NCBI GenBank assembly: GCA_937924775.1
Contig: CALDUT010000001.1
Location: forward strand, 124,001-188,000
Length of the DNA stretch: 64,000 bases
Source of the DNA: an uncultured Gemmata sp.
GTDB lineage: Bacteria > Planctomycetota > Planctomycetia > Gemmatales > Gemmataceae
Direction of reading: 5' to 3'
This document shows positions 49,118-59,041 of the stretch, one piece after another. The notes beneath the pieces are model-generated. The model made no database searches. It was given only the letters and a program-made list of their open reading frames with translations, and was not told the origin of the DNA. The first letter of the stretch is position 1. Every line of letters begins with the position of its first letter. Both the position numbers and the translations under genes were made by a program.

Positions 49118-50353
49118 ATGAGGCGCATCGGCAGTTGGATTCTCATAGCAACATTCGTGGGAGCGACTGCGACTGCCCCGGACGATGCCGTCGCCCAAGT
49201 GGAACCACCGACCCGGATCGAAACCAAAAAGCCTGATGGTTTCTCCGGACGTACCCGCGAGGGTAAAGCCCGCTTGTTGAAGGAATTTGGCGGCTCCGAA
49301 GAGGGGGAAGAAGCCGTCATGCTGGGGCTGGCGTGGCTGACGCAGCAGCAAAAGCCCGAAGGCTATTGGGAATACGACGACGGGCATTACGTGTCGTCCC
49401 GGGCCGCGGCCACGGGCATGGCCGTTTTGGCATTTCTGGGAGCCGGTCAATCGCACAAAGACGGCCGCTTCAAGCAAACCGTACAAGCGGGGCTCGATTG
49501 GATTGTGAAGAATGTCCACATGGAACAAGGCCCCAATAACGGCAAGATCAATACAATCAGATATATGTATTGCCAAGGCATCGCGACGTTGGCCCTGTGC
49601 GAAGCCTACGGCATGACTGGTGACCCGGCCCTCAAAAAATCGGCCCAGGCCGCGATTGATTACATCCAACGGGCCCAGGGAGCTAATGGCAGTTGGGGAT
49701 ACTATGCCGGGCAGGAAAGCGATACCTCGATCGTCGGTTGGCAGATTCAAGCTCTCCATGCGGCGATGTTAACGCAAGACCTGGTCGTGGACCGCAAAGT
49801 GATCGAACGCGCCCTGGCATTTCTCGATTCGGTCAGCTCCGATCGCTACAAATCCACCTACGGCTATCGCTGGCCCCCCGGACAACACGCCACCTCCTGT
49901 ACCGCGATTGGGCTGCTCTGCCGGTACTATGTGGATGGGTGGCGTCGCGAACACCGCGGCTTTGCCGAGGGTTCCCAAGGGTTGATGAAACGTGCCCCCA
50001 CCCCGGCCGATCGCAACAATATCGACCTCTACTACCTCTATTACGCCACCCAAGTGGTCCGCTTCTATGGTGGCGAAGAATGGAAGATCTGGAACGAAGG
50101 ACCCCTCGGCCCCGACGGGAAACGCCGCGGGGGGCTGCCGGAATTGCTCCTGAGCGTGCAAGACCGCACCCCGGCTCACCGCGGTAGTTGGCCGGCGCAG
50201 ATTGATTGGAAAAACGGGCAAGGCTTTGGTCGCAATTGCGGCCGGCTGGGCACCACCTGCATGTGTCTTCTGACACTGGAAGTCTACTACCGCTATCTCC
50301 CGGAAGAGAGTACGGCCGACCCACGCAAACCCGAAAAGCCAGACAAACCTTAA
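49118..50353 (+). CDS. Secreted prenyltransferase/squalene-oxidase-repeat protein
   Basis: 411 residues. The signal peptide (about 1-27) is followed by alpha/alpha-toroid repeats: YWEYDDGHYVSSRAAATGMAV, YIQRAQGANGSWGYY, and TYGYRWPPGQHATSCTAIGL. The fold matches squalene cyclase/prenyltransferase barrels. No DxDD or other clear catalytic acid motif is visible, so it is probably a noncatalytic, planctomycete-type secreted member. GGAGG is 7 bases before the ATG. Confidence 0.87.
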   Translation: MRRIGSWILIATFVGATATAPDDAVAQVEPPTRIETKKPDGFSGRTREGKARLLKEFGGSEEGEEAVMLGLAWLTQQQKPEGYWEYDDGHYVSSRAAATGMAVLAFLGAGQSHKDGRFKQTVQAGLDWIVKNVHMEQGPNNGKINTIRYMYCQGIATLALCEAYGMTGDPALKKSAQAAIDYIQRAQGANGSWGYYAGQESDTSIVGWQIQALHAAMLTQDLVVDRKVIERALAFLDSVSSDRYKSTYGYRWPPGQHATSCTAIGLLCRYYVDGWRREHRGFAEGSQGLMKRAPTPADRNNIDLYYLYYATQVVRFYGGEEWKIWNEGPLGPDGKRRGGLPELLLSVQDRTPAHRGSWPAQIDWKNGQGFGRNCGRLGTTCMCLLTLEVYYRYLPEESTADPRKPEKPDKP

Positions 50354-50628: not shown

Positions 50629-52356
50629 ATGGCAACGCTTGAATTCCACAGCCCCCTGGCGTGGGTCCGATTTCTCTTCCGCGAGGTACTGTTTTCCGGC
50701 CCTCTGGCCACCGATACGCAGATCCGCCTCTCATCACTTTTCCTCGTTCTGGTTCTGCCCGGCGTGCTCCTGTATCCCACACGATCGTTCCACTTATTGG
50801 AACCCGATGAAGGGCGTTATGCGCAGATTCCCAAGGAGATGCTTGAAACCGGTTCATGGATTGTCCCAACTTTGCAAGGGGAAGCGTACCTCGACAAGCC
50901 GCCACTCCTGTATTGGCTTGTAGCGCTCAGTTACAAAGTGTTCGGAGTTTCTGCAGAAGCAGCCCGGCTGGTTCCGGCGTTGTGCGTGCATCTGACGATT
51001 CTGGCCGTGTACCTGATCGGTCGCCAAAGCCTGGGCGAGCGGGCCGCGATGTGGGCCGCCCTGCTGCTGACCGTCGCTCCGGGATATGTCAGTGTCGCTC
51101 GGCTGATCCTTCTTGATGGCTTACTGACCCTATGCGTGACGGTCTCGGTGTTGTGCGGCTTTGAAGCAGTCCGCACTGGGACATTCCGGCCGATGTGGTG
51201 GCTGGCCGCGGCGTTGGCTTCAGGTTTCGGCTTTCTTACGAAAGGTCCGATCTCGGAAGTGCTACTGTTTGTTCCCCTGTGGGTGTTCGCGTACTTGGCC
51301 GCGGGCGAAAAGTCGGTCGGGTCGGCGTCCCTGTCCAAAAACTGGGCAGAGCCTTCGGGTCCTCCGATCAAGAATAACCCTGCCGAGGCGGCGCATTCAA
51401 CCACAGAGAGTTCGCCCACAAGCTTGATCAGAAATTGGTCAGCCCATCTGCCCGCGAATCCCCCGCTGGTGTGGTATGGGATTTTCTTCGCGGTCGTGTT
51501 GGCGGTGAATTTGCCGTGGTATGTCGCGATCTATCTCGATCAACCGCACTTTTTGAAGTACTTCTTTTGGGAACACAACGTGTTGCGGTTCCTTCAGCCA
51601 TTCGACCATTTGCAACCAGTGTGGTACTACGCCCCGATTCTGGCGGGCGGATTGCTCCCGGGCACGATCTTTTTAGCGGTATACCTGTGGCAACTGATAC
51701 GGGGGGAACTGTCGGTGCGCCCATCGCTAGCGGGAGGATTCTGGTTGCTGGCCGGGGGCTGGTGTATGGTCTTCTTCAGTTGTTCGGGAAGCAAACTGCC
51801 GACGTATATCTTGCCGGCGTATCCGTTTTTGTGCTTAGCGATGGGGGAATTCATCGCACGCACGCGGTGGAATCGGGCTTTCGGCACGCGAGTGCTGATC
51901 GGTGCCATGGCTGCGATCGTTGGTTTTGTTCACTTTGTAGCCATTCCGTGGTATGCTCAGGAGCGGTCGCCGGTGGGGCAACCGGAATTGGTCGAACGCT
52001 ATGTCGGGAACCCGAACGTGGCCGTGGTGTGTTTCCCCCGTAATTGCGATTCGGTCGCGTTCTATTACAACCGTTGCGATTTGAAGAGTATCCGCACTAA
52101 GAATATCAATCAGTTGATGGTCGATTGCCACCACCGGCCGCAAACGGTGATTTTATTCACCCATCGCGATTCGCTGACGGGCTTCAAAAATACATTACCG
52201 CCCAGTCTGAAAATCGTGGAAACAACGACCCTGAAACGCCAAGGGCGTGGAACCCTTTTGGATAAGCTCACCGGCTCCACGCCGTGGGGGCTGTGCGATA
52301 TCGCAGTTGTGGTGCCGCTCTATCAAGTTCCGCCACCACCCGATGGAGCCGAATAA
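50629..52356 (+). CDS. GT39-family membrane glycosyltransferase (ArnT/PMT-like)
   Basis: 575 residues. LEPDEGRYAQIPKEMLETG (the GT-C Asp-Glu motif in the first periplasmic loop) is followed by LDKPPLLYWLVAL, then about ten membrane helices. Members move sugars such as Ara4N or mannose from polyprenyl phosphates to lipids or proteins. The hydrophilic tail (about 440-575) resembles the soluble part of ArnT relatives. GTAAGGGTG precedes the ATG. It is convergent with the neighbouring glycan cluster, suggesting a shared theme. Confidence 0.9.
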   Translation: MATLEFHSPLAWVRFLFREVLFSGPLATDTQIRLSSLFLVLVLPGVLLYPTRSFHLLEPDEGRYAQIPKEMLETGSWIVPTLQGEAYLDKPPLLYWLVALSYKVFGVSAEAARLVPALCVHLTILAVYLIGRQSLGERAAMWAALLLTVAPGYVSVARLILLDGLLTLCVTVSVLCGFEAVRTGTFRPMWWLAAALASGFGFLTKGPISEVLLFVPLWVFAYLAAGEKSVGSASLSKNWAEPSGPPIKNNPAEAAHSTTESSPTSLIRNWSAHLPANPPLVWYGIFFAVVLAVNLPWYVAIYLDQPHFLKYFFWEHNVLRFLQPFDHLQPVWYYAPILAGGLLPGTIFLAVYLWQLIRGELSVRPSLAGGFWLLAGGWCMVFFSCSGSKLPTYILPAYPFLCLAMGEFIARTRWNRAFGTRVLIGAMAAIVGFVHFVAIPWYAQERSPVGQPELVERYVGNPNVAVVCFPRNCDSVAFYYNRCDLKSIRTKNINQLMVDCHHRPQTVILFTHRDSLTGFKNTLPPSLKIVETTTLKRQGRGTLLDKLTGSTPWGLCDIAVVVPLYQVPPPPDGAE

Positions 52357-52474: not shown

Positions 52475-53746
52475 TTAAGCTGCCGCTCGCCCGGCGGCGA
52501 CGTAAACAATCGCCGGATGGTGGGCAAAACCCGCGGCGAGGAAATGGGTGGGATCGATAAGACGCGGTTGGTTCATGGCGTGTTGAACCTGAGCGGGCGT
52601 CAGTTCCCGATACTGGGGCCACGGTGTCGCGAGTACGCCAAGATCGGCCCCGGTGAGAGCTTCGACGGCGCTAAAAGCCAGTTCCACCCCTTCCAACTCC
52701 GCGGGGAGCTGGCGAATCGCCGGATCGTGAGCTCGGACCTTCACCCCACGCGTCAGTAGCCAGTGGCACAATTCCACCGAACTGGAACGGCGGAGCGTAT
52801 CGGTCCCAGGTTTGTAGGTCAGCCCCAGAACAGCAACCGTCGAACCAGGCGGCACATCGGCCAACTGCTCGCGGAGCCAGCGTTTCTGGCATTCATTACT
52901 GTCCCAAACCCCGCGGAAGAGAGGGGCCGGGCGGTGGTGCCGTTCGGCCAATTCCAACAGAAAGCCGATGTCGCGGGCTAGGGTGCCGCCGGCAAAGGCA
53001 GCCCCCGGCGACAGATACGCCCGGGGCCCGATCCGCTGCTCACTTTTGAGGCCACGTTCCACTTCCTTGGCATCGGCACCGACCACTTCACACAGCCGGG
53101 CCAGTTCATTGATGAACGCCACGGAGGTGGCGAGGAAGGCATTGACCGCGTGTTTGGTCATTTCCGCAGAAGCCACCGACATCCACACCCGCTCGCCGCC
53201 GAAGGGAGCGAAGAGTTGAGTCAGCGTGTCCCGATCACGCGGATCGCAGCCAATCACAATCCGATCGGGGCAGCGGAAACAGTTTAGGGCTTGCCCCAAG
53301 CGGAGGTTTTCCGGCGAACAGGCCACCCGAACCCCCCGGAGTTGCCAATCGGTAGCCAGCTGAAGTCCAAACCCCACAGGAACTTGCGACGAAATTAGCA
53401 CCAGTTGCCCAGGGCGAAGCCAAGGGGCGATGGCGTCGAGGCGGTCGCGGACCCACGCCACGTCGGCCCGGTCGTTCTCATCCACCGGGGTATCGAAACA
53501 CACCCAAATCACCTCGGCGGTAGGAATGGCTACAGCTGGATCGGTGGTGAAACGCAACCGCCCGGCTTTCTGCTGTTCAGCGATCAACGCCGTTAGCCCC
53601 GGTTCGTCCACCGGCGGCTTATTGGCCACCAGATCGGCAATGGTCCGCAGCTCCGGATCGAGGCCGATGACATTATGACCGCCTTCGGCCAGACAAGCGG
53701 CCGTCACGCTGCCGAGGTGCCACAGCCCATACACGGTTACATGCAT
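52475..53746 (-). CDS. UDP-glucose/GDP-mannose dehydrogenase family protein, catalytic Cys replaced
   Basis: 423 residues. The Rossmann start MHVTVYGLWHLGSV, the helix containing Lys198 and Asn202 (SAEMTKHAVNAFLA) and the FAGGTLARDI segment match UGD/GMD enzymes. In this segment the nucleophilic Cys of the usual GGSCFPKD is replaced by Thr255, confirmed in the DNA as ACC. Without Cys the two-step oxidation to an acid is unlikely, so activity may be a single oxidation, an altered mechanism or none. It is the last gene of the minus-strand glycan cluster. Confidence 0.9.
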   Translation of the reverse strand: MHVTVYGLWHLGSVTAACLAEGGHNVIGLDPELRTIADLVANKPPVDEPGLTALIAEQQKAGRLRFTTDPAVAIPTAEVIWVCFDTPVDENDRADVAWVRDRLDAIAPWLRPGQLVLISSQVPVGFGLQLATDWQLRGVRVACSPENLRLGQALNCFRCPDRIVIGCDPRDRDTLTQLFAPFGGERVWMSVASAEMTKHAVNAFLATSVAFINELARLCEVVGADAKEVERGLKSEQRIGPRAYLSPGAAFAGGTLARDIGFLLELAERHHRPAPLFRGVWDSNECQKRWLREQLADVPPGSTVAVLGLTYKPGTDTLRRSSSVELCHWLLTRGVKVRAHDPAIRQLPAELEGVELAFSAVEALTGADLGVLATPWPQYRELTPAQVQHAMNQPRLIDPTHFLAAGFAHHPAIVYVAAGRAAA

Positions 53747-53814: not shown

Positions 53815-54780
53815 TCAAGCTGCGGCGGGCCGGGCTTCCAAAACCCACGGATTGGCTCGCAGATAGTCGAGTGTGCGAATGACCGCTTCCCGGATGCTGA
53901 CTTTCTGCCGCCACCCGTAGGATTTGAGCTTGGTTGTATCCAGAAAGATGAACGGGCTATCCCCCACCCAACCGCGGATACCTCCGGTGTAGGTCCGCTT
54001 CGGCTGCAAACCCAATCGTTCGGTGATCCAATCGAGCGAATCATTCACTTCGCAGTATTCATCCGCCCCGAGATTGACGATATTGACGGGTTCGGTGGCT
54101 TTTTCGATCACGGTGAACATCGCGTCGATGCAATCTTGTACATAAAGGTAGCTCTTGCGTTGGCGACCGTTACCCAAGACTTCGATGGTGTGCGGATTGG
54201 CCCGCAGTTTCGCGTAAAAGTCGAAAACGTGGCCGTGGGTGTAGCGTTCGCCCAAGATCGACACAAAGCGGAAGATATACACCTGCAAGCCAAAGCCGTA
54301 GGCGTATGCAGTGATCAGCCCTTCACCCGCGACTTTACTGGCCGCGTAGAGGCTTGTTTGCACGGGAAACGGGGCGGTTTCCGGCGTTGGAAAGACCTCC
54401 GGTTCGCCATACACCGAGCCGGTCGATGAAAAACCAATCCGCTGGATGCCGTTACGTCGCATCGCTTCGAGAACGTGGAACGTCGCAATCGTGTTCTGTT
54501 GCAAGTCGCGATCCGGATGATGAGTCCCGAAACGGACATCCGCGTTGGCCGCCAAGTGAAAAACGAAGTCGTGCCCGGCGATGGCTTGTTGCAACGCCGG
54601 CAAGTTTAAGAGATCGCCCTCGATGAGTTGGAACCGCGAATTCTGCAACGCGGCTTCGAGAAACCTCCGCTGACCGGTACTGAAGTTGTCGTAGGCGGTT
54701 ACTTCATGGCCGGCGGCCAACAACCGATCCACGAGGTTGCTTCCGATAAATCCGGCCCCGCCAGTGACAAAGTAACGCAT
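53815..54780 (-). CDS. NAD-dependent sugar epimerase/dehydratase
   Basis: 321 residues, extended SDR. The GGAGFIGSNLVD nucleotide motif, catalytic Ser in SSTGSVYGEPE and YAASK are present. It is like GalE/UDP-glucuronate epimerase-type enzymes, and the exact sugar is not fixed by sequence. AAGGA precedes the ATG by 5 bases. It lies in the glycan cluster between GT2 and the UGD-like gene. Confidence 0.93.
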   Translation of the reverse strand: MRYFVTGGAGFIGSNLVDRLLAAGHEVTAYDNFSTGQRRFLEAALQNSRFQLIEGDLLNLPALQQAIAGHDFVFHLAANADVRFGTHHPDRDLQQNTIATFHVLEAMRRNGIQRIGFSSTGSVYGEPEVFPTPETAPFPVQTSLYAASKVAGEGLITAYAYGFGLQVYIFRFVSILGERYTHGHVFDFYAKLRANPHTIEVLGNGRQRKSYLYVQDCIDAMFTVIEKATEPVNIVNLGADEYCEVNDSLDWITERLGLQPKRTYTGGIRGWVGDSPFIFLDTTKLKSYGWRQKVSIREAVIRTLDYLRANPWVLEARPAAA

Positions 54781-54873: not shown

Positions 54874-55599
54874 TCATGCCACACGGTGCGGTCGAGCCCA
54901 GCGAATACGTAAGAGATCCTGGAGGTTCTTCCAATTGCCGCGAATCAGTTGCAACCGCGTGTCGCCGTCGTCTTGCCAGTGGACGCCGACCTCCTTGATC
55001 GTGTAGCCCAACCGGGTGGCCAATGTCAGGATTTCGACATCGAACATGTAGCCGTCGATCCGTTGTCGGGAAAAGAGATCGCGAGCCACGGCGGCGCGGA
55101 AGAACTTGAAGCCGCATTGGGTATCGGCAATCCCCCGTAAGCCCACCAGCGGCCGCATCAGCAGAGCAAAGCCTGTGGAACCGAGGGTTCGGTACCAGGG
55201 TCGTTTCGCGTGGATGGCCGCCCCCGCGACCTTGCGCGAGCCAATCACAATGTCGTACCCCTGTTGGAACCAGGGCAGAACCTTCTCGATTTCCTCAATG
55301 GTGACTTTGTAATCGGCATCGAGAAAGCCGCAGATATCGCCGGTGGCCGCGAGCATGCCTTCCCGAACACCACAGCCTTTACCGCGTCGCTGCGGTTGGC
55401 CCATCACTTGCACCGGGAGTTCGCCGGCCAGAGCCGTCGCGGCTTCACGGGTGCCGTCGGTGCCATCGGCGGCGACAATCAGCTCGTAGCGGTAGCCCCG
55501 GGGCTGCAGATAGGCATGAATGGCCCGGAGCGTGCGTTGAATCGTGGCGACCTCATTAAACGCCGGGATGACCAGACTGAGACTCGGAATCCCATTCAT
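54874..55599 (-). CDS. GT2 family glycosyltransferase (dolichol-phosphate mannosyltransferase-like)
   Basis: 241 residues, 245 if the ATG at 55611 is used. Motifs are LVIPAFNEVATIQ, VAADGTDGTREAA, GKGCGVREGM, DADYKV and the later QCGFKFF. The layout is that of DPM1/undecaprenyl-phosphate glycosyltransferases, which charge a lipid carrier with a sugar at the membrane. A 12-base tandem repeat lies just upstream. The gene follows the giant membrane protein gene by 148 bases. Confidence 0.92.
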   Translation of the reverse strand: MNGIPSLSLVIPAFNEVATIQRTLRAIHAYLQPRGYRYELIVAADGTDGTREAATALAGELPVQVMGQPQRRGKGCGVREGMLAATGDICGFLDADYKVTIEEIEKVLPWFQQGYDIVIGSRKVAGAAIHAKRPWYRTLGSTGFALLMRPLVGLRGIADTQCGFKFFRAAVARDLFSRQRIDGYMFDVEILTLATRLGYTIKEVGVHWQDDGDTRLQLIRGNWKNLQDLLRIRWARPHRVA

Positions 55600-55747: not shown

Positions 55748-58700
55748 TCAGGGCCGCACCGGCACAAAACCGAGAAACCGCAACTGGGCCGCCACGTTGC
55801 GGCCATCTGGTGGCGAAAGCGTTTGTGTATGCGAAAATCGGCATTCCACCCACCGGGCTTGAGAACCTCTGGCGACCGGGGCCCGAACTTCAAATTCGCC
55901 CACGCCCAACGACCGACGCGCCACCTCCGCACCATCGACCCACACCGTCAGCTCGGTGAAAAAGGCACTATTGCCCTCCACTGCGGGAACCAATCCCCGC
56001 ACCACAATCTCGCTGTCGTCGGCTGCGGGCAACAATTTCGCCCGCAAGTGTCCCTGACACCAACCATCGCTGTGAATTCCGGTTTGTTCGAGGTTGGGAT
56101 GGCTCAAATCGGCGGGGAAGACGCTGAGCCGCTCGGGCGGGCGGGCGCGGGCTTCGTCGCGAGCTTCAAAGCCGAGGGAATCAATCAGAGCCGCGACCCG
56201 CCGGCCATCGGGCTCGGGAATCAGTTGCGTATGGGAAAATCGGAGTTCAACCCAGCGGGGGCCAATACCGGGGGAACCTGCGGCTCGAATTTCGAATCTA
56301 CCGGAGTGGAGCTTCCGGCGTTCGACCAGAACTCCGTCGATGAGAACCGCGACTTCGGTTTGGAAGTTTTCGGCCTCCGGCAAGCCCGGAACCAGTCCAC
56401 GGATGACACATTCTTGATTGGAATCGGTCTGACTGAGGCGCATTTTGGCGACCGTCCCGATCCAGCCGTCTTCCATGAAGCCGGAGTACTCCAAATGGGG
56501 GTGCAACAGGTCGTGGGGAAAACGATAAACGCCCTGCGGTGGTACGAACGCGGCATATTCTTCTTCCGACAGAACGGAAATATCCCGAATGTGCCCCGTC
56601 AGCCAACGTCGATCGCGGGGAAGATCGCTGGCCCACAATTTCTCGGCCGCTGGCAGTTGGTTGGGATTGCGGCGAGGTTCACCGAAATCGAACGCGAGAT
56701 AATGGCCACCGGCGATGCTCTGAGTGCCCAACGGCGGGGAGACCAACCGGGCTGAACCCAACCCCACAGCTCCCAACGATACGCGGCGATCACCAATGAC
56801 CTGCACCCGCGGCACCCAGCGCCAAACAGGATCGACCCGCGACGAGCCGGTGGTGTTCACCAGCACCCGGACTTGCGGCGAGGGATTCAGGACATGGGTC
56901 ACCATGGCTTGCCCCACCCCGGCGAACGTCCGTTGGGGAAAGCTCGGATCGGCTTCGAGCCGGTGCAGGGCAATTTCCCGGGCATAGTCCATACCCAGAA
57001 ATGCCTGGCGAGCCCCGGTGGCATCGCAAAACACCAGGACATTCCGCAATTCCCCCAGTGGGTTGCAAATGAGCGGTTTACTGCCTTCTGGATAGTGGAA
57101 GCGATTCAGTACCGACAATGAACCACTCGGTAGTACGACCAGCGTTCGTTCGGGGTGAAGTTGGTCCACACGAGGCTGCTCGGTCATCAACCGATGCAGA
57201 GCCACACCTTGCTCCGGATCGCGGATCAGAGGTCCGCGGCTGTGGGGGCGGTGAGCGAAATACGCGTCCGACAGCCGTTGGAAAGCTCCTGAGGATTGTT
57301 CGCGATAATGCTGCGAGCGTGCGAAGTTGTCCATTCCCGGCAGGAGATTACGTACGACCATGTCGAATTGGTTAACACCCAAACACAGCGTCGGCAGGCC
57401 GCGTAATTCCGGCACAAGGAGTTTGGTCAGATACAAATTTTCTGCTCCGATCAAAATTTGTTCGACTTCGCCCCGTTGCTTGCGTGTGAGAACTTCCGCT
57501 TGCAGATCGTCCACCGTCTGGCCCCCCCAGTGGCTGGGGAGTTCGACACGGAATTCCTGACCGCGGCTTTGGTCCACATACCAGAACTGTACTCGGGCAT
57601 TCTGAGCAGCCACGACAAGCAACACCACAAGTCCTGTGAGAGTGGCCCAGTGACGCCGACGCGTCAGCACCCACGCCGCAACCGCCGCCCACAAAAACGG
57701 TTGCAAGAACATCACTAACTTGAAGAGGCCGAAAGCACTTTTCGCGGTGAAAAGCAAAACTCCCAAAGCCATCCCCACCGCCAGCAGAGCGGCAAATGGG
57801 CGGCCTCGCCGCACACCGGCTACCACCGGAAGGCCGGCCACGGCTAACAAAGCCAACCCGATAAAAACGGCCACATTCTGGAATTCGTCTGATTCTGGAC
57901 CGGTGAACGGAAGCAATCCCCACACCAATGCTCCCAATCGCGGGGTTAAGTTGAAGGGGAATATTTCTTGCACACGTTCTTCGGAATTGGTTCCTTGAGA
58001 GCTTTGGGAAAGAATGAAACGAGCCGTTGCGGAAACATACGCGGGGAACAACGCGAACATCAGGCCAATCGCGGCCGCCGCATGAAGAAGATACCGACGA
58101 TCTAATTGATGCAAGACAATCCGCCGCACCCCCAAAATCACGCAAGCCCCAACCAGAAGCGGGATCACTTCGGGGTAAAACAACGTTTGCCCAGCAAGAA
58201 CTACCCCGGTCACACCAGCCCGGGTGAACACCAGTGACCCGGAAATCCGCGGCCACCGGGCATTGACCAGTGCCAACGCCACACACAAAAGCGATAAACC
58301 GCTCACCTGCGCGATCAATTGCTGAACAATCCCATAGGTGGTTTGCGACGACACCATGAGTAACAGGGATGTCAACACACCCACGGACCGTCGGCCTGTT
58401 CCGGCGATGGCCAATCCGCCGGCCGCGGCAACCAGCGCCATATTCAACGCCACAATCACCGGCATGAAAATTTGCACCACCGGCGTGCCGCTCCATACCG
58501 ACACCAACGCCAGCAACACCTCCGAGCCCGGCCGCGCTTCCGCCAGGGGAAAGCCAAAAAACGCCTGCGTGTAATCGGTTCCCGTGACCAAATCCTGACC
58601 CTCGGGAACTTTCACATACCCATGTTCGCGATAACCGGTGGCCATAAGGCAGTAGTTGGCCATATCGTCGTTGCCGTTGGCCAACCAGTTGAAGCCGTAA

Positions 58701-59041
58701 CTGAACATGGGCCAAGCGGTTACGCCAAATGTGGCCACGAGAATGGCAGCCCACACGCGGCTCTGCCGCCATAATCCCCACCAGCGCGACCCGGTCGGTC
58801 GGTATCGGGCCAATAGTCCCACACTGGCCAGAACTGTGACCACCACGATGGGCCACGCCAACACCCGTACCGGATAACCCAAGCGAACGAAAAAGTACGT
58901 CGCCGCGACAATGGCGGCGAAACCCACCGTCGGGGCGAAAAGAAGCGTCGTTAGTTTCCAGCGGTAACGGCCAACACTCAGTAGCGCCAGGCCGCTGATG
59001 GTCCACAACAGGAACAGCGACCAACTGAGTAATACCGCCAT
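55748..59041 (-). CDS. Large multi-pass membrane protein with duplicated C-terminal domain (probable GT-C-like)
   Basis: 1,097 residues. About twelve membrane helices lie in the first 530 residues, with an acidic loop NGNDDMANYCLMATGY after an early helix, as expected for GT-C transferases. A soluble middle region of about 300 residues follows. The C-terminus carries two copies of one domain, about 841-960 and 975-1097. Shared markers are DGW, RGLVP, FE(I/V)RA, RFSHTQ and PDGR. I do not recognise the domain; a carbohydrate-binding or interaction role is guessed. GGAG lies six bases before the ATG at 59041. First gene of the glycan cluster. Confidence 0.85.
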   Translation of the reverse strand: MAVLLSWSLFLLWTISGLALLSVGRYRWKLTTLLFAPTVGFAAIVAATYFFVRLGYPVRVLAWPIVVVTVLASVGLLARYRPTGSRWWGLWRQSRVWAAILVATFGVTAWPMFSYGFNWLANGNDDMANYCLMATGYREHGYVKVPEGQDLVTGTDYTQAFFGFPLAEARPGSEVLLALVSVWSGTPVVQIFMPVIVALNMALVAAAGGLAIAGTGRRSVGVLTSLLLMVSSQTTYGIVQQLIAQVSGLSLLCVALALVNARWPRISGSLVFTRAGVTGVVLAGQTLFYPEVIPLLVGACVILGVRRIVLHQLDRRYLLHAAAAIGLMFALFPAYVSATARFILSQSSQGTNSEERVQEIFPFNLTPRLGALVWGLLPFTGPESDEFQNVAVFIGLALLAVAGLPVVAGVRRGRPFAALLAVGMALGVLLFTAKSAFGLFKLVMFLQPFLWAAVAAWVLTRRRHWATLTGLVVLLVVAAQNARVQFWYVDQSRGQEFRVELPSHWGGQTVDDLQAEVLTRKQRGEVEQILIGAENLYLTKLLVPELRGLPTLCLGVNQFDMVVRNLLPGMDNFARSQHYREQSSGAFQRLSDAYFAHRPHSRGPLIRDPEQGVALHRLMTEQPRVDQLHPERTLVVLPSGSLSVLNRFHYPEGSKPLICNPLGELRNVLVFCDATGARQAFLGMDYAREIALHRLEADPSFPQRTFAGVGQAMVTHVLNPSPQVRVLVNTTGSSRVDPVWRWVPRVQVIGDRRVSLGAVGLGSARLVSPPLGTQSIAGGHYLAFDFGEPRRNPNQLPAAEKLWASDLPRDRRWLTGHIRDISVLSEEEYAAFVPPQGVYRFPHDLLHPHLEYSGFMEDGWIGTVAKMRLSQTDSNQECVIRGLVPGLPEAENFQTEVAVLIDGVLVERRKLHSGRFEIRAAGSPGIGPRWVELRFSHTQLIPEPDGRRVAALIDSLGFEARDEARARPPERLSVFPADLSHPNLEQTGIHSDGWCQGHLRAKLLPAADDSEIVVRGLVPAVEGNSAFFTELTVWVDGAEVARRSLGVGEFEVRAPVARGSQARWVECRFSHTQTLSPPDGRNVAAQLRFLGFVPVRP

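What the first reader, a model, noticed from the sequence alone, without database searches (positions are those of the whole stretch)
55748..59041. Giant GT-C-like membrane protein with an unassigned tandem C-terminal domain
Two copies of about 120 residues (nucleotides 56521-56162 and 56119-55751) share DGW, RGLVP, FE(I/V)RA, RFSHTQ and PDGR. I cannot assign the domain; position in the glycan cluster suggests carbohydrate or lectin-like binding.
Basis: partly seen in the sequence, partly recalled or inferred. Interest (0 to 1): 0.55.

Follow-up and report, generated by a model that had tools for sequence, protein, structure and literature searches.

The report
Membrane sugar transferase with twin sugar-binding-like tails
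A Gemmata-like bacterium carries a large membrane protein that looks like an enzyme adding sugars outside the cell membrane, ending in two copies of an unnamed domain predicted to fold like known sugar-binding modules; the overall design is known from cell-wall enzymes, but this family matched no named one.

Summary
The 1097-aa frame (55748-59041, minus strand) ends in two copies of one domain (aa 835-959, 969-1094), 46% identical, far above shuffled sequence. No Pfam, NCBIfam or PDB sequence match was found. One copy is predicted (pLDDT 84) as an eight-strand beta-sandwich; its structural neighbours include CBM35, CBM6 and CBM36, which EmbC's C-terminal module also matched in print. The rest has 14 predicted helices, N and C termini outside, and an invariant Asp-Asp in the outer loop after helix 4. 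All 19 membrane-region rows among the 50 VIA rows shown are, or appear to be, GT-C enzymes, but that model is weak (pLDDT 47). In 13 of 13 relatives examined a GT2 gene like polyprenyl-phosphate-sugar synthases and an SDR gene follow. The domain also ends TIGR04372, GT4-GT2 and GT2-GT4-GT2 glycosyltransferases and one distant GT-C-like protein. Best reading: a GT-C enzyme moving a sugar from a lipid carrier to an outside glycan, gripping the glycan with tandem CBM-like domains. Catalysis, donor, acceptor and binding are inferred. GT-C plus C-terminal CBM is a known design (EmbC, AftD, GT136); this family, its duplication and the domain's sharing among glycosyltransferases look undescribed in the searches made.

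The parts
55748..59041 (-). Whole gene, 1097 aa: GT-C-like membrane protein with tandem C-terminal domain
57596..59041 (-). Membrane part, aa 1-482, 14 helices by my assignment, N-out; helix 4 onward corresponds to the GT-C fold in the VIA rows, helices 1-3 are extra
   Evidence: hydropathy and positive-inside count over 13 sequences
58664..58672 (-). N124-D125-D126 in the outer loop after helix 4, invariant in the 13 cores of A7 and present in L030; candidate catalytic Asp (D126 has a counterpart in distant L136, D125 not)
56540..57595 (-). aa 483-834, predicted extracytoplasmic, fold unassigned (model pLDDT mostly under 50)
56165..56539 (-). Tandem domain copy A, aa 835-959
55760..56137 (-). 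Tandem domain copy B, aa 969-1094; predicted 8-strand beta-sandwich, pLDDT 84.4
54874..55599 (-). GT2 glycosyltransferase, 241 aa (start chosen from relatives), like dolichol-phosphate mannose synthase 5mlz and ArnC; no 19-residue stretch above 1.08 in Kyte-Doolittle hydropathy
53815..54780 (-). SDR nucleotide-sugar epimerase/dehydratase-like protein (best PDB 3ehe, GalE-1)
52475..53746 (-). UDP-glucose 6-dehydrogenase-like nucleotide-sugar dehydrogenase (TIGR03026 above cut-off)

Best explanation
The protein is an extracytoplasmic glycosyltransferase of the GT-C kind. Proposed path: the dehydrogenase and the SDR enzyme make a UDP-sugar derived from UDP-glucuronate; the GT2 enzyme loads that sugar (or another) onto a polyprenyl phosphate on the inner face; an unidentified flippase turns it over; and the GT-C protein, with D126 (or D125) as the catalytic acid in its first GT-C outer loop, transfers the sugar to a glycan outside the membrane. 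The two C-terminal jelly-roll domains act as CBM-like modules that grip the acceptor glycan, the pair giving more avidity or reach than one copy. Shown here: the repeat, a confident fold prediction of one copy, the topology signal, the invariant residues, the gene neighbourhood, and recurrence of the domain on other glycosyltransferases. Inferred: catalysis, donor, acceptor, flipping, glycan binding and the role of duplication.
For: Domain model pLDDT 84.4, pTM 0.79; VIA Z 9.0, rmsd 2.9, 102 aligned to CBM35 2w47, with further CBM35, CBM22 and CBM6 rows; CBM36 1ux7 and CBM6 in the Foldseek list. Topology: the 7 loops assigned inside average 2.6-5.5 Lys+Arg, the outside loops of up to 36 residues 0-1.8. 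Full model: 19 of the 50 VIA rows shown align to the membrane part; 18 are titled as GT-C enzymes (AglB 3waj Z 13.4, rmsd 3.1, 223 aligned; AftA 11.2; PglB 9.7; ArnT 8.7) and one is a translocon chain I take to be STT3. N124-D125-D126 in 13 of 13 cores of A7 and in L030. GT2 and SDR genes downstream in 13 of 13 loci, the dehydrogenase in 10 of 13, one of these cut by a contig end; the GT2 is closest to DPM synthase in PDB, E 1.2e-17. The domain ends TIGR04372 glycosyltransferases, GT4-GT2 and GT2-GT4-GT2 proteins and a distant GT-C-like protein L136. Precedents: GT136 ORF12, whose isolated C-terminal CBM bound its acceptor (PMC11127046: abstract, passages, sections 9 and 10); EmbB D285/D286 and C-CBM (PMC7341804, passages); EmbC CBM, whose DALI list shares 1ux7, 2w47 and 2w87 (PMC3044687, passages).
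Against: The full-length model is poor (mean pLDDT 47.1); Foldseek's GT-C rows for it are not significant (AftA E 4.3e-3, PglB 9.0e-3, TM-scores by query length 0.14-0.20); VIA's own note says mostly helical models reach Z about 14 without a clear relative, and the AftD row has rmsd 18.7. No sequence match to a GT-C or CBM family. The domain's VIA list also holds toxin, Eph-receptor and other jelly rolls at similar Z. No GtrA in this genome. A close GT2 also occurs with the SDR but without this protein in G007 and G040, 2 of 15 genomes with that GT2. A weak domain match (3.0e-4, 1.4e-4) lies on a Ser/Thr-kinase-like protein (L036). Outside loops are not all poor in Lys/Arg: the 70-residue loop before helix 5 averages 3.8 and the first 20 residues after helix 14 average 3.0. 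The ORF12 CBM was dispensable for activity.
Confidence: 0.6

Rival explanations
1. GT-C enzyme as above, but the tandem domains are structural: they brace the enzyme or mediate dimer or partner contacts and bind no glycan.
For: Jelly rolls serve many roles; the VIA list also holds toxin receptor-binding and Eph ligand-binding domains at similar Z.
Against: The same domain ends several unrelated glycosyltransferase folds, easier to explain by a shared sugar-related task.
Confidence: 0.22
2. The membrane part is not a single-sugar transferase but a polymerase, O-antigen-ligase-like enzyme or other lipid-linked glycan handler of the same locus.
For: No sequence family assigns it; the middle 350 residues are unassigned.
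Against: The 19 membrane-region VIA rows shown are, or appear to be, GT-C enzymes and none is titled a polymerase or ligase of that kind (50 rows shown); a DPM-synthase-like GT2 follows in 13 of 13 loci.
Confidence: 0.12
3. The protein glycosylates proteins (OST- or PMT-like) rather than a glycan, the domains serving to contact acceptor proteins.
For: The highest structural rows are AglB/STT3 oligosaccharyltransferases.
Against: No Pfam STT3 or PMT match; no WW.[YFW]G motif, the recalled OST signature, in the protein; CBM tails are known on glycan-acting GT-Cs.
Confidence: 0.06

Closest known systems
Mycobacterial arabinosyltransferases EmbA/B/C and AftD (GT-C with CBMs)
   Same: GT-C membrane protein, conserved acidic pair (EmbB D285/D286), extra N-terminal helices, C-terminal jelly-roll CBM with CBM6, CBM35 and CBM36 structures among its neighbours (passages)
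   Different: No sequence match; here two tandem copies of one about 125-aa domain; EmbB also has an N-terminal CBM; donor and acceptor unknown here
GT136, Citrobacter youngae ORF12 three-component system
   Same: GT-C enzyme with a C-terminal beta-rich CBM in a locus with a polyprenyl-phosphate-sugar synthase and an epimerase
   Different: 11 helices and one CBM (residues 503-652) there; the synthase there uses PRPP, here the neighbour is DPM-synthase-like; MATE flippase there, none identified here; sequences not compared directly
Gtr and ArnT type lipid-linked sugar transfer
   Same: DPM-synthase-like GT2 plus GT-C; a UDP-glucose-dehydrogenase-like and an SDR gene as in the Arn pathway (pathway recalled)
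   Different: No GtrA in the genome; ArnT and Gtr lack the tandem tail (recalled)
CBM35 / CBM6 / CBM22 / CBM36 modules
   Same: Predicted fold; the rows titled CBM35, CBM22 or CBM6 have Z 8.0-9.0 over 93-110 residues
   Different: 8-11% identity in those rows, no profile match; Ca2+ and ligand residues not checked

Membership tests
GT-C glycosyltransferase fold | 7 or more membrane helices | tested here: met
   14 helices assigned from hydropathy and the model, with a consistent positive-inside pattern
GT-C glycosyltransferase fold | Conserved Asp in the outer loop after the first GT-C helix | tested here: met
   D125-D126 in 13 of 13 cores of A7 and in L030, outside by positive-inside, after helix 4, which most of the VIA rows place as the first GT-C helix; only D126 has a counterpart in L136
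GT-C glycosyltransferase fold | Fold similarity to solved GT-C enzymes | tested here: inconclusive
   AglB Z 13.4, AftA 11.2, PglB 9.7, but model pLDDT 47 and Foldseek not significant
GT-C glycosyltransferase fold | Use of a polyprenyl-phosphate-linked donor | not testable with these tools
   Only the neighbouring GT2 points to it
Pfam or NCBIfam families of GT-C enzymes | Profile match above cut-off | tested here: not met
   DUF6541 touches 2 of 13 members at best E 7.4e-4, and its search of 19 genus genomes has no match over the cut-off
CBM35/6/22/36-like modules | Jelly-roll beta-sandwich fold | tested here: met
   Predicted model only:
CBM35/6/22/36-like modules | Profile match to a CBM family | tested here: not met
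   No Pfam match at E<=1, no NCBIfam match at E<=5
CBM35/6/22/36-like modules | Carbohydrate binding | not testable with these tools
   Needs an assay
Three-component periplasmic glycosylation system | Adjacent polyprenyl-phosphate-sugar synthase | tested here: met
   DPM-synthase-like GT2 downstream in 13 of 13 loci; its activity is inferred
Three-component periplasmic glycosylation system | Dedicated flippase (GtrA, SMR or MATE) | tested here: inconclusive
   No PF04138 in the genome at E<=0.001, controls positive in 7 of 14; SMR and MATE not searched

The most novel reading that the evidence does not exclude
An undescribed GT-C family of Gemmata-like planctomycetes with three extra N-terminal helices and a duplicated acceptor-binding domain; the domain is itself an unnamed, mobile accessory module that planctomycetes attach to the ends of unrelated glycosyltransferase folds (GT-C, TIGR04372, GT4-GT2), probably on both sides of the membrane, to hold a common glycan.
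Probability: 0.35. Interest if true: 0.55.

Novelty: new variant of a known kind. Interest (0 to 1): 0.4.

Why it matters
Planctomycete surface glycans are poorly known (recalled). This gives a concrete enzyme, a candidate donor pathway and a testable binding module. The domain could be named as a family and used to find glycosyltransferases that may act on related glycans. The tandem copy makes it possible to test what duplicating such a module does in a GT-C enzyme, against the single-copy relatives L031 and L032.

Tried and rejected
A hidden further copy of the domain in aa 1-834: no support (hhalign probability 0.2). DUF6541 as the family: 2 of 13 members at best 7.4e-4, but no match over the cut-off in 19 genus genomes, and the own-genome hit is on another contig; not adopted. 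DUF7810: E 0.41 and 0.33. Plasmid records: no match. Literature: DUF6541 none; TIGR04372 with glycosyltransferase none; Gemmata glycan terms 3 listings, none relevant by title; planctomycete GT/DUF terms 2 listings, none relevant by title; planctomycete GT-C/CBM terms 19 papers, 8 listed, none about this by title, none opened. L036 kinase was left as a possible chance match.

Weak relatives. G019/L088 (E 2.8e-7; read as L090): hmmsearch with default filters gave nothing, with filters off E 2.8e-8 over 23 frames but 22.9 bits with 18.9 bits of bias; possible distant GT-C-like relative, not counted. L136: hmmsearch of the core with filters off E 0.0013, 7.2 bits with bias 45; hhalign of A2 98.2% over 819 columns, with E for a single comparison, and a domain match; counted as a probable relative. 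G013/L018 (E 0.004, frame with four stops) was put through the domain profile, which reported no match at E<=1, and was not pursued.

Limits of the genome searches: per genome only part of the first-look candidates was scored (up to 11, 10), so misses are possible.

Rows dropped: one search kept 27 of 30 domain hits (three short pieces from the broken frame of L030). Of 14 core genes (window and L020-L032), A2 holds 12 (L030 and L032 left out) and A7 13 (L030 left out). A4 leaves the frame-broken L071 out, 8 of 9 rows of A3. A6 holds 8 of the 27 rows of A1 plus L051.
Full report
Observation. The minus-strand frame 59041-55748 encodes 1097 residues, with a start Met aligned in all 12 rows of the ortholog alignment. 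Its last 263 residues hold two copies of one domain, aa 835-959 and 969-1094. Their alignment scores 266 against at most 52 in 500 shuffles. They are 46% identical as protein and match at 223 of 365 bases as DNA.

Database status. The protein has no Pfam match at E<=1, no NCBIfam match at E<=5, and no PDB sequence match for the tandem part at E<=10. Profiles of the whole protein, the domain and the core find nothing significant in PDB.

Relatives. Among 95 genomes of the same family, own genome included, the domain profile A1 hits 15 and the core profile 15, of which 14 are strong: 13 of 19 in the genus plus G053. The domain's fifteenth is a weak hit on G054. In a draw of 294 genomes of the phylum the core is found only in the own genome; in a draw of 392 the domain profile A1 finds the own genome and one weak hit, G365, and the broader profile A6 adds G121. 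Only part of the candidates was scored in each genome, so these are lower bounds. The 8 named contigs are titled Gemmata sp. (3), Planctomycetia or Planctomycetota bacterium (4) and Singulisphaera sp. (1); the nearest is Gemmata sp. SKYG68 at 82%. Two relatives, L031 (934 aa) and L032 (961 aa), carry one copy only. A tree of 27 domain copies splits A from B copies with one change (support 72/85, so weak; 98% of 200 bootstrap trees). The single copy of L031 falls in a set with A copies (85/95), that of L032 and the TIGR04372 copies outside. One duplication before the genus spread, with a loss in L031, is the simplest reading.

The domain. AlphaFold with 15 rows gives pLDDT 84.4, pTM 0.79 and eight strands. 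Foldseek finds no PDB match at E<=0.001, but its list holds CBM36, CBM6, CBM51 and glucuronidase jelly rolls. VIA-align gives Z 8 or more for 55 of 999 chains: C. difficile RBD1 9.1, CBM35 2w47 9.0 (rmsd 2.9, 102 aligned), then other CBM35, CBM22 and CBM6 rows, mixed with binary-toxin, cellulose-synthase-subunit and Eph-receptor rows. This supports the fold, not the function. The crystal structure of EmbC's C-terminal module had 1ux7, 2w47 and 2w87 among its own neighbours (passages of PMC3044687). In 27 copies the invariant aromatics are one Trp (W860, W994) and one Phe (F935, F1069).

Where else the domain occurs. It ends two TIGR04372 glycosyltransferases (L033, L034; 197.5 and 188.3 bits, cut-off 45), a GT4-GT2 protein (L137, the longer reading of L051) and a GT2-GT4-GT2 protein (L135) ('GT4' for PF00534 is recalled), and a 915-aa membrane protein in another family of the phylum (L136). 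L136 aligns with the window protein by hhalign (98.2%, 819 columns, 23% identity), while plain hmmsearch of the core is weak. One weak hit lies on a kinase-like protein (L036). So outside the ortholog set I count 5 proteins with a glycosyltransferase assignment or GT-C-like core and 1 without.

The membrane part. Averaged over 13 sequences I assign 14 helices. The seven loops that would be inside carry 2.6-5.5 Lys+Arg; the outside loops of up to 36 residues carry 0-1.8, the 70-residue loop before helix 5 carries 3.8 with 9.5 acidic residues, and the first 20 residues after helix 14 carry 3.0. This puts the N terminus, the loop with N124-D125-D126 and the C-terminal 600 residues outside. The acidic pair is in 13 of 13 cores of A7 and in L030; D126 but not D125 has a counterpart in L136. 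The full model is weak (pLDDT 47.1). Foldseek with it lists AftA (E 4.3e-3) and PglB (9.0e-3) among beta-rich hits, neither significant. Of the 50 VIA rows shown, 19 align to the membrane part; 18 are titled as GT-C enzymes (AglB, OST complexes, AftA, PglB, PMT, ArnT, ALG3, AftD) and one is a translocon chain I take to be STT3. Such Z values can be generic for helical models, so this is a consistent pointer, not proof. In most of these rows the enzyme's first helix falls on helix 4 of our protein, which puts D125/D126 about where GT-C enzymes keep a catalytic Asp (position recalled, not computed). EmbB's pair D285/D286 corresponds to residues reported as required in its relatives (passage of PMC7341804).

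Neighbourhood. In 13 of 13 loci with the core (L020-L032) the GT2 and SDR genes follow it; the dehydrogenase is found in 10 of 13, one cut by a contig end. In L032 the GT2 is only 42% identical. The GT2 is most like dolichol-phosphate mannose synthase (5mlz, E 1.2e-17) and next ArnC among solved structures and shows no membrane helix. The dehydrogenase passes TIGR03026; the SDR is GalE-like. A close GT2 (E<=1e-60) occurs in 15 of 95 family genomes: the 13 genus genomes with the core, plus G007 and G040 without it. In both the SDR follows; no core was found in the stretches held, which for G007 is 2.4 kb upstream on a short contig. So the core may be an addition to an older cassette. GtrA was not found in the own genome while 7 of 14 controls were positive; the flippase is open.

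Mechanism. The order proposed is: UDP-sugar made by the dehydrogenase and SDR, loading on polyprenyl phosphate by the GT2, flipping by an unknown carrier, transfer by the GT-C protein, with the tandem jelly rolls holding the acceptor. The closest worked example is GT136 ORF12, where the isolated C-terminal CBM bound the unmodified O antigen but was not essential for activity (section 10 of PMC11127046). That caution applies here.

Verdict. The design is known. The family, the duplication and the sharing of this domain among glycosyltransferases of different folds were not found described in the searches.

Noticed in passing
window 50629-52356 (+): A second GT-C-type gene: PMT_2 above cut-off, best NCBIfam match the ArnT model but far below its cut-off, in the same cluster.
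   Followed up: no
window 49118-50353 (+): Protein with weak squalene-cyclase/prenyltransferase-like toroid matches, all below cut-off; 92% identical in L020.
   Followed up: no
L021, L023, L025, L027, L031, L032 between the GT2 and SDR genes: One or two frames that read like SAM-dependent methyltransferases (by eye, not searched) stand between GT2 and SDR in these relatives; the window has only 93 bases there.
   Followed up: no
L030:8901-12258 and L071 (Gemmata sp. IIL30): The orthologous frame is broken inside the tandem domain and continues in another frame; real or a draft-assembly error.
   Followed up: partly
L090:8141-10399: 753-aa membrane ORF in G019, core-profile hit at 2.8e-7 in the genome search, seen in hmmsearch only with filters off and with strong bias; possibly another GT-C-like protein.
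   Followed up: partly
L036:94-1782: Ser/Thr-kinase-like protein (by eye) whose C-terminal tail weakly matches the domain.
   Followed up: no
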